Of a stretch of DNA of 64,000 nucleotides, positions 42,801-60,604 are shown in pieces (positions within the stretch are counted from its first letter, which is position 1; every line of letters begins with the position of its first letter). Location of the stretch: NCBI GenBank assembly GCA_029931535.1, contig JAQPZY010001250.1, positions 620,001-684,000 of the forward strand. Direction: 5' to 3'. The position numbers and the translations under genes are program-made. Below the pieces are notes generated by a model. It was not told where the DNA came from. It saw only the letters and a list, made by a program, of their open reading frames with translations, and ran no database searches. The stretch comes from Margaritifera margaritifera. Its lineage: Eukaryota; Mollusca; Bivalvia; Unionida; Margaritiferidae.

Positions 42801-45800
42801 ATTGATATGGCATAGGATTACATTGACTAGTTAAAGTGTGTGTTGTATATATAATTTGTCAGTGTTTCGTGTTTGTATTCTGGTACTAGTCCATGTGGAT
42901 TTTGCCCATTTGTGACAAGAACAGGAACCAGCTACAGATCCAAGTCAGTAGCAAAAATAAATGTACATGGTTCATACAGTTTGTTATAATTATGACATGT
43001 AATATATAAATTAAACTTTTTATGCCCAGATTACACTTTTTTGACATCAGATTATGCTTATACCTCACTAGGGGTTGGCAGGTATAGCCATATAAAATAA
43101 GTTCTTTTCTCTGACTCAGAACAAAACACGAATGTGGTTTTGTATTTATTACATACTTTGTTTTGCATTTTCAAAATATTTTAGCTATACAGTGTAAACA
43201 GAATTTTAAAATATATGGATTTAGAAAAGTATGATTTGGTGTCTATAACATATTAATGTGTGGATATTACTGAAGACACTGAAAAGTTACAGTCAGGTGT
43301 ACAGTATCGATATACAGAATGCACACCTGTATCACACACCTGATTAATCATGTAATATTAATGGTGTATGTAATAAATGTTTGTATAATATGACCCACAG
43401 TACACTACTAGGCCTGGAGATCATAAAACCCTGAGGTTGTGTTTCAGATTGAGTTTCTCCTTATAGTCAGTCAAAAGTGACTTTTCAAAAGTAATATGAG
43501 TTAGAACACACTATCCCACCTTTGCCAGAGTTATGGGCTTGCACAGAAGCTTTAACATTGGCTTAATTGATCCTGCTACTACCACAAACATCAGCATTAC
43601 TATGTCTCAAAGTTTTATTGTTTTAAAAATATAAGACAAAACAAAAGCCATAGTTGGTTGACAGCAAAATCTTAAGACCAAATCCAAGATCTCCAGGCCA
43701 GTAGTAACCAAATGTGTGCCATCATAAAAGTTAGTAGCCTCTAACTCTTTTTTTTTTTTCTTCTTCTTCTTTGCCCTGTTTTGGCAGAATGGACTATTCA
43801 CTTAATCCAAAACTGTGAGTCTTGCATGGTCATTGAAATTACATTCTGTATGCATTTTATAAGTTCTTAGTACTAGTAACTTGTACAGCTGTATGTACTG
43901 TATAACAGGTTATTTTTGTGGACATTGTTTTAGCAATTTCAACTGAAAAGGGTTTCTTAGCGATTTCAACTGAAAAGGGTTTCTTAGCAATTTCAACTGA
44001 AAAGGGTTTCTTAGCGATTTCAACTGAAAAGGGTTTCTTAGCGATTTCAACTGAAAAGGGTTTCTTAGCAATTTCAACTGAAAAGGGTTTCTTAGCGATT
44101 TCAACTGAAAAGGGTTTCTTAGCAATTTCAACTGAAAAGGGTTTCTTAGCAATTTCAACTGAAAAGGGTTTCTTAGCGATTTCAACTGAAAAGAGGAGGT
44201 TTAAATTTTGGCAAGTTATATTTTAGTGATTGCAGATATAGGAAGGGTTATCTGGGACAACCAGTAGTATTTGTGATCCCTAGAACATATGGTCTTCTTC
44301 AATTACACTGAATTATCTTATCATTTGATAAGTGAAAAATCGGGAAGAACAAATCATGTAATCAGGTTATGTCATTTAATTGACACAAAGTCTGTTTCTA
44401 TGCCAAAAAGGAGAATGTTGTTTAATTTGATAACATTAAAGTCAAGAATACTCTCGGCCATTTCTTTTGTGAGCTTGCACATGTTCACAATAACTACTCA
44501 AGGTGCATAACATAAAATTCCTTAGTATTGTCATAGTAGTGAATAGGTGGCAGTCCCTTGAACTCATTATTCGCAGGATACGCGAGTTATTTATGAAAAG
44601 TACTAAATGAGCAAGCCAATTACTTTATTTATTATTCACTTTACGTATCAGTACATAAAGATTGGGTGCCCCCCTCACCCCAGAAAACAAAACAAAATAT
44701 TTAACATTTACTTTGGATACTATTTATACTCCAATACTTACTGTTGAATAATGTTTAGTTCACCTGACCAGAAGACCAAGAGTGCTTATAATGAAATCCT
44801 TTGTCCCTGATCCATCATCAAGCTATCAACAGTTTTTACCACCTGGTGGCTATGTTTATGATCCAGTTTTGATCAAACTTGGAATGTAGGCATACAACAT
44901 TAAGATCTTGGAAGAGTTCAGTAATGAGTAAGATCCACTTTTATTAATGAGGTGATTTTGCATCTAATTGGCTGAGCTTGTGACAAATCTGTAGACCATG
45001 TGTATGATCCAGTTTTTAGTTGATAATGAGTAAGATCCATGTATATTAATGAGGTGATCTTGAATCTGTTTGGGTGAGCTTATTACTACTCTGATTCAGT
45101 TTTGATCAAATTTTAAATGTAGGCTCATATCACTAAGATCTTGGATGAGCTGGATCAGCAAGATCAATGTCTATTAATGAGATGATTTTGCATCCAATTG
45201 GCTGAATTTGTTGCTGCTCTGGAAGCCTCATGTCTAGCCATATTGTGATCAGACTTTGAATATATGCTTATCTTATCAAAATTTCAGATATCCCTGATAA
45301 TGATCAAGATTTATGGATATTAATGAGGCGATCACACATCAGATTGGCTGAACTTGTTATAATTCTTGAGACTAATTCTAATTCAATTTTGATCATGCTT
45401 GGTAAATAGGCTTTTATTATTAAGATGTCCAGTCTGTTTTATTATCAGCGAAATCTATGTACATTAGTGGAGAGATCTTGTACATGGTTGGCTGAACTTC
45501 TTGCCACGAAAGAGATGGCATTTCTGATCCAATAATAACAAAAAATCATCAGTATGTTGGATTTTTGTTATGAGCAAAACTTATTGTATGCATAATAATG
45601 AGATGATATTGCATATTATTGGCTGAGTTTGTTACCACTCTAGAGACTATACAATATATTTCATTGGATTTTGATCAAACTTGGCAAATAGGTTCATCAT
45701 GATCTTGGATGAGCACGATTATGTGCAAGATCCACACATATTAATGAGGTGGTCTTGCATCTGGTTGACATTGCTTTTCAGTAGTCTGAAACTTGGTTTC

Positions 45801-60604: not shown

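What the first reader, a model, noticed from the sequence alone, without database searches (positions are those of the whole stretch)
44755..59340. One element superfamily with interchangeable tandem cores and shared ends
Arrays with unrelated cores (A ~145 bp, B ~145 bp, E ~305 bp, F ~145 bp) begin with variants of TTTAGCTCACCTG..AAG..GTGAGCTTATA (44755, 52388, 56003, weaker at 47637, 20943 and 56271). Where the 3' end is visible it is a short palindrome followed at once by CTTGT: AGGCTCATTTGGGCCT-CTTGT (46331), AGTCCCTTTGAGGGACT-CTTGT (58962), a weaker one at 38812, and CTTCA after the same palindrome at 8622. A hairpin just inside a fixed 3' terminus recalls Helitron-type ends, and tandem-core non-autonomous elements are known in bivalves (pearl elements, Helitron-related HINEs). 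Shared ends with swapped cores would make these one modular superfamily. Several span kilobases of this gene's introns.
Basis: partly seen in the sequence, partly recalled or inferred. Interest (0 to 1): 0.8.

Follow-up and report, generated by a model that had tools for sequence, protein, structure and literature searches.

The report
Jumping elements carrying tandem-repeat cargo
These look like worn, protein-less jumping elements of a kind already described in oysters: their ends are alike, their middles are short arrays of repeats, and one of them sits exactly inside another.

Summary
Four arrays (A1, A2, B, F2) begin with an alike ~65-bp 5' end. Two pairs of copies share a 3' end that stops at palindrome-CTTG (one copy CTTC). 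The hairpin+CTTGT motif alone is not above chance (2 found, 3.3 expected); the support is that pair similarity stops there.

The A unit breaks at a T-run and resumes after CTTG, 2 bp short of its consensus and without target duplication. So 56000 is A's 5' end, not F's.

'Unrelated cores' is too strong: A resembles C (155-bp array), B resembles F, E is a dimer of ~154 bp. A versus B and A versus F share a 5' end without detectable core similarity. This is the pattern published for oyster HINEs (non-autonomous Helentrons). Canonical Helitron fits worse (CTTG is not CTRR). Against: within single elements the sub-terminal repeats do not match above chance. The home genome could not be searched, so copy number, autonomous partner and species are untested.

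The parts
44753..46329 (+). Element A1: 5' end (44753-44818), A array (44833-46185), linker, 3' end with palindrome 46310-46325 and CTTG 46326-46329
56000..59308 (+). Element A2: 5' end 56000-56065, A array 56080-56258 and 58959-59308, interrupted by F2; 3' end not found
56256..58958 (+). Element F2, nested in A2: 5' end from 56256, F array 56406-58841 (itself interrupted), 3' end with palindrome 58938-58954 and CTTG 58955-58958
56630..57527 (.). 898-bp insert inside F2's array: ends TGTTACG/CGTAACA, 4-bp duplication CTTG; unrelated kind of element
52385..53615 (+). Element B: 5' end 52385-52450 and B array 52506-53615; 3' end not found
5448..8620 (+). Element F1: F array 5448-6517, ~1.9 kb of unclear sequence, 3' end with palindrome 8600-8616 and CTTC; 5' end not found
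38752..38813 (+). Lone 3' end D, 87% like A1's over 45 bp; a weak C unit (E 0.0047) lies upstream at 38024-38096
9046..9650 (+). A array A0 without ends
47633..50116 (+). Element E1: 5' end 47633 and E array 48621-50116 (307-bp units, each a dimer)
20942..22443 (+). Element E2: 5' end 20942 and E array 21167-22443, interrupted at about 21980-22195
39213..42023 (+). C array C2 (~155-bp units, related to A), broken in places; no ends found
18948..19471 (+). C array C1; no ends found

Best explanation
The arrays are decayed copies of non-autonomous Helentron-type rolling-circle elements (HINEs), the kind described in oysters. Each intact copy has a 5' end (T-run, then a sub-terminal repeat near AGCTCACCTG, with an inverted partner close by in the best copy), a tandem array of ~145-155-bp units as cargo, and a 3' end made of a sub-terminal stretch (..GAGC..) and a short palindrome ending in CTTG. 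Likely mechanism: a Rep/helicase supplied by an autonomous Helentron elsewhere starts at the 5' end, peels off one strand, stops at the 3' palindrome and joins the copy between T residues without target duplication. SHOWN here: alike 5' ends, two pairs of alike 3' ends with a sharp outer boundary, one clean nested insertion at a T-run without duplication, and relatedness of cores within {A,C} and {B,F}. INFERRED: the rolling-circle mechanism, Rep supplied in trans, and replacement of cores between elements with alike ends.
For: 5' ends A1-A2, A1-B, A1-F2, A2-B, A2-F2 score 42-57, 0 of 300 Markov randomisations each; the 100 bp upstream score 13-25 in all 15 pairs. 3' pair similarity falls from 76-84% to 27-33% over 45 bp at CTTG/CTTC. 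Nested F2: joined flanks fit the A unit with a 2-bp gap at the joint. A1 and A2 arrays start at unit positions 82 and 85 and end at 56 and 55. No Rep or helicase domain in 29 of 167 ORFs scanned. Published anatomy of HINEs is alike: PMC7492417 (Results, part of Discussion), PMC4067079 (Results parts 1 and 2 of 3).
Against: Within one element the sub-terminal repeats do not match above chance: A1/A1 7 of 11 (903 of 3000 random places do as well), F2/F2 6 of 11 (2342 of 3000); only across copies A2/D 9 of 11 (12 of 3000) and A2/F1 9 of 11 (20 of 3000). Of 10 ends folded, 3 fold better than at least 196 of 200 shuffles (A2 5' end, A1 3' end, F1 3' end); F2's 3' end is reached by 17 of 200; the other six by 22 to 173 of 200. 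Hairpin+CTTGT is not above chance as a motif. The 5' pair B-F2 is not significant (93 of 300). One empty site only. No autonomous partner or genome-wide copies seen. The palindrome is 4 nt from the end, against 8-35 bp in the mite HINEs.
Confidence: 0.75

Rival explanations
1. No core exchange: one old lineage whose ends are held by the transposase while the cores drift until they cannot be recognised; the 'swapped cores' are only unequal decay. This is a rival to the modular step, not to the HINE reading.
For: A-C and B-F show that cores can drift far and stay recognisable; A arrays keep their phase against the flanks.
Against: 5' end likeness does not follow core likeness: A2-B (57) and A2-F2 (51) are more alike at the 5' end than B-F2 (20), although B and F have related cores. 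Three pairs only, single decayed copies. Group 2 of the oyster elements has related flanks with unrelated repeats.
Confidence: 0.4
2. Ordinary satellite arrays spread by extrachromosomal circles or recombination, with end motifs by chance.
For: Arrays A0, C1 and C2 have no recognisable end, and A2, B, E1, E2 and F1 lack one of the two; stand-alone arrays are reported in oysters (PMC8268682, passages).
Against: The nested insertion is bounded exactly by the two ends; alike 5' ends with unlike flanks; alike array phase in A1 and A2.
Confidence: 0.07
3. MITE-type cut-and-paste element with terminal inverted repeats and target duplication.
For: Imperfect inverted likeness between 5' and 3' ends across copies (A2/D 9 of 11, A2/F1 9 of 11); pearl-type elements have been called MITEs (PMC5139131, passages).
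Against: No duplication at the one clean site; the 3' repeat is internal to a palindrome and the within-element repeats do not match above chance. The 898-bp insert 56630-57527 shows what a duplicating inverted-repeat element looks like here.
Confidence: 0.06
4. Canonical Helitron (3' hairpin then CTRR, 5' TC, insertion between A and T; features recalled).
For: Hairpin just inside the 3' terminus and no duplication.
Against: 3' ends are CTTG in 3 of 4 and CTTC in 1 of 4; 5' ends start with T-runs followed by AG or AC.
Confidence: 0.05

Closest known systems
Cg_HINE elements of Crassostrea gigas, above all group 2 (Cg_HINE_3 and _6), PMC7492417
   Same: Short arrays of mostly 140-180-bp units between conserved left and right flanks; 3' palindrome; T-rich insertion site without duplication; related flanks with unrelated repeats
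   Different: Flank sequences could not be compared letter by letter (figures and supplements not held); species unknown here; sub-terminal repeats are clear there and only cross-copy here
Repbase Helitron-N families of C. gigas that share a 53-bp start and a 42-bp end (Helitron-N3, N4, N28, N29, N31, N32, N35, N40), PMC8268682 (passages)
   Same: One set of ends with several different central repeats
   Different: Here the alike 5' stretch is about 65 bp and the 3' ends fall into two types; sequences not compared
HINE-Mo of the mite Metaseiulus and DINE-1 of Drosophila, PMC4067079
   Same: Sub-terminal repeats, 3' palindrome, T-rich target, no duplication; some copies with tandem repeats
   Different: Palindrome 8-35 bp from the 3' terminus in HINE-Mo, 4 nt here; autonomous partners known there, none seen here
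pearl elements (CvA and others) and DTC84 of clams, with units related to BIV160/Cg170, PMC5139131 (passages) and PMC7492417 (Discussion part 1)
   Same: Modular elements with up to six ~160-bp central repeats in bivalves
   Different: Relation of the A/C or B/F units to BIV160/Cg170 was not tested

Membership tests
HINE (non-autonomous Helentron) | No coding capacity | tested here: inconclusive
   No Rep/helicase/endonuclease domain in 29 of 167 ORFs of at least 65 aa; the other 138 were not scanned
HINE (non-autonomous Helentron) | 5' sub-terminal repeat with a matching inverted copy near the 3' end | tested here: inconclusive
   Across copies 9 of 11 (12 and 20 of 3000 random places as good); within A1 and within F2 not above chance
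HINE (non-autonomous Helentron) | Palindrome near the 3' end | tested here: met
   7-bp perfect stem in F1 and F2, 6 of 7 in A1, weak in D; position 4 nt from the end, closer than in the mite HINEs
HINE (non-autonomous Helentron) | Insertion into T-rich/TT sites, no target duplication | tested here: met
   One empty site only (F2 in A2): T-run joined to T, 2 bp missing against the consensus, no duplication
HINE (non-autonomous Helentron) | Shares ends with an autonomous Helentron coding for Rep/helicase/endonuclease | not tested
   The genome search gave no answer in eight tries (3, 6, 16, 23, 29, 37, 50, 55)
Canonical Helitron | 3' terminus CTRR after a hairpin (recalled) | tested here: not met
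   CTTG in 3 of 4 ends, CTTC in 1 of 4
Canonical Helitron | 5' terminus TC and insertion between A and T (recalled) | tested here: not met
   5' ends begin with T-runs, then AG or AC; the one clear site is within a T-run
MITE with terminal inverted repeats | Target-site duplication | tested here: not met
   None at the nested site; one site only
pearl / BIV160-related arrays | Units related to BIV160/Cg170 | not tested
   No reference sequence at hand

The most novel reading that the evidence does not exclude
A HINE lineage with a fixed CTTG terminus directly after the 3' palindrome and one type of 5' end that has served at least two unrelated repeat cores, so that the ends work as a general carrier that takes up, multiplies and replaces satellite units in this genome.
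Probability: 0.3. Interest if true: 0.4.

Novelty: new member of a known kind. Interest (0 to 1): 0.22.

Why it matters
Such elements explain how satellite-like repeats come to be scattered through genes. In this window up to 28% (18,120 of 64,000 bp) lies in the ten spans that I list as such elements or arrays, counting inner linkers and the nested insert, so this is an upper figure. The nested pair gives one clean boundary at both ends without reliance on a motif, and the mix of related and unrelated cores makes 'core swapping versus unequal decay' testable in a full genome.

Tried and rejected
Motif counting alone: hairpin+CTTGT 2 found, mean 3.3 in 20 simulated sequences; TAGCTCACCTG with up to 2 mismatches 18 found, 11.4 expected; GGTGAGCNATA with up to 2 mismatches 56 found, 43.8 expected. 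The case rests on alignments, not on these.

Searches of public contigs for ends and cores: 0 loci in viral contigs and in genome contigs; these hold viruses, bacteria and archaea, so the lack of hits says little. Paper searches by sequence letters: one search matched 74 papers, of which the 20 listed are unrelated; one search matched 1 paper, a yeast one. Rfam at gathering threshold and tRNA scan of the window: none.

Considered and rejected: B and F as unrelated cores; 56000-58958 as one F element; canonical Helitron; MITE; plain satellite arrays.

Full report
What is there. The window is AT-rich DNA with part of a FYVE zinc-finger exon at 17305-17448 (Pfam FYVE E 8.4e-7; best PDB match the FYVE domain of Vps27, E 2.4e-6) and many tandem arrays. 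Five core families, A, B, C, E and F, were modelled and mapped over the window. The species is not known to me; 'bivalve-like' rests on the published element kind and on recall.

5' ends. A1 (44753), A2 (56000), B (52385) and F2 (56256) share about 65 bp. The pairs A1-A2, A1-B, A1-F2, A2-B and A2-F2 score 42-57; 0 of 300 Markov randomisations reach this, and 1, 1, 1, 2 and 2 of 300 random places of the window do (whether these overlap the ends themselves was not checked). B-F2 scores 20, which 93 of 300 randomisations reach. E1 and E2 match each other (46; 0 of 300). Against the other four they are weak; randomisations reaching the score, of 300: 214 (A1-E1), 4 (A1-E2), 10 (A2-E1), 22 (A2-E2), 1 (B-E1), 48 (B-E2), 173 (F2-E1), 70 (F2-E2). 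The 100 bp upstream of the ends score 13-25 in all 15 pairs.

3' ends. A1 with D (38752-38813), and F1 with F2, are alike up to CTTG/CTTC and unlike beyond. A and F types are distantly alike: of 500 random places 2 reach A1-F1, 2 reach A1-F2, 4 reach D-F2, but 271 reach D-F1; for the close pairs it is 0 (A1-D) and 1 (F1-F2). As a bare motif hairpin+CTTGT is not above chance. Folding: of ten ends, the A2 5' end and A1 3' end are matched by 0 of 200 shuffles, the F1 3' end by 4, the F2 3' end by 17, the other six by 22 to 173. In A1 the best fold pairs the sub-terminal repeat with the palindrome's left arm and loop, not the two arms.

The nested insertion. A2's array runs to unit position 120 at 56258, in a T-run. 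F2 follows with its own 5' end, array and 3' end; after CTTG (58955-58958) the A unit continues with TCACACTTGG. The joined flanks align to the A unit with a 2-bp gap at the joint (GA missing) and gaps of 2 and 6 bp further on. There is no duplication beyond the shared T. This fixes both ends of F2 without use of a motif. F2's array is in turn broken by an 898-bp element, 56630-57527, with ends TGTTACG/CGTAACA and the 4-bp duplication CTTG; its printed flanks, read together, give the F consensus at that place. So three insertions are stacked: A, then F, then the inverted-repeat element.

Cores. By dinucleotide shuffles A-C (45; best of 300 shuffles 35) and B-F (46; best 35) are related; B-C is borderline (11 of 300); A-B (64), A-F (263), A-E (223), B-E (287), C-E (130), C-F (288) and E-F (289 of 300) are not. 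Unit profiles agree weakly: C on A1 down to E 0.002, F on B down to 5e-4, B on F down to 0.019, A on C 0.79. E is a dimer: its halves score 125 against at most 35 in 500 randomisations; neither half is related to A, B, C or F (lowest 44 of 300). The arrays of A1 and A2 begin at unit positions 82 and 85 and end at 56 and 55; A0 ends at 49. So A arrays differ by about whole units between fixed flanks.

What it works like, and membership. The anatomy is that of HINEs. In PMC7492417 (abstract, Results and first of two parts of the Discussion read) eleven Cg_HINE elements carry arrays of mostly 140-180-bp units between a 5' sub-terminal repeat with inverted partner and a 3' sub-terminal repeat with palindrome; they prefer T-rich/TT sites without duplication, and group 2 has related flanks with unrelated repeats. 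PMC8268682 (passages) reports eight Repbase families that share a 53-bp start and a 42-bp end. PMC4067079 (abstract, Results parts 1 and 2 of 3) gives the HINE definition. Membership here is likely, not proved: the sub-terminal repeats match beyond chance only across copies, and the autonomous partner was not testable.

Limits. The genome search gave no answer in eight tries and the home genome was not given as a file, so there is no genome-wide copy count, tree or Rep search. Pfam was run on 29 of the 167 ORFs of at least 65 aa listed, plus the FYVE exon piece.

Noticed in passing
56630-57527: 898-bp insert in the F2 array with 7-bp inverted ends TGTTACG/CGTAACA and 4-bp duplication CTTG; no other copy in the window at E 0.01 for 56632-57523.
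   Followed up: partly
29988-31673: Broken piggyBac-type transposase (name recalled): Pfam DDE_Tnp_1_7 in three ORFs, one of them just under the cut-off, and zf-Tnp_2 just under the cut-off.
   Followed up: partly
17305-17448: FYVE zinc-finger exon piece; with the ORF at 623-880 it recalls ZFYVE21, a guess from memory.
   Followed up: partly
5597-5632 and other F units: F units match their own model on the opposite strand (positions about 77-113): an inner palindrome around GGCCACCATGGCGGCC.
   Followed up: no
46510-47121, 25171-25476, 43930-44193: Young-looking tandem arrays with 91-99% matches (periods 77, 50 and 27); the 27-bp one is open on both strands for over 90 aa.
   Followed up: no
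10234-10333 and 40232-40331: Inverted pair of 100 bp, 82% alike, perhaps another short interspersed repeat.
   Followed up: no
55222-55585 and 59535-59896: Direct pair of ~365 bp, 75% alike, outside the elements described.
   Followed up: no
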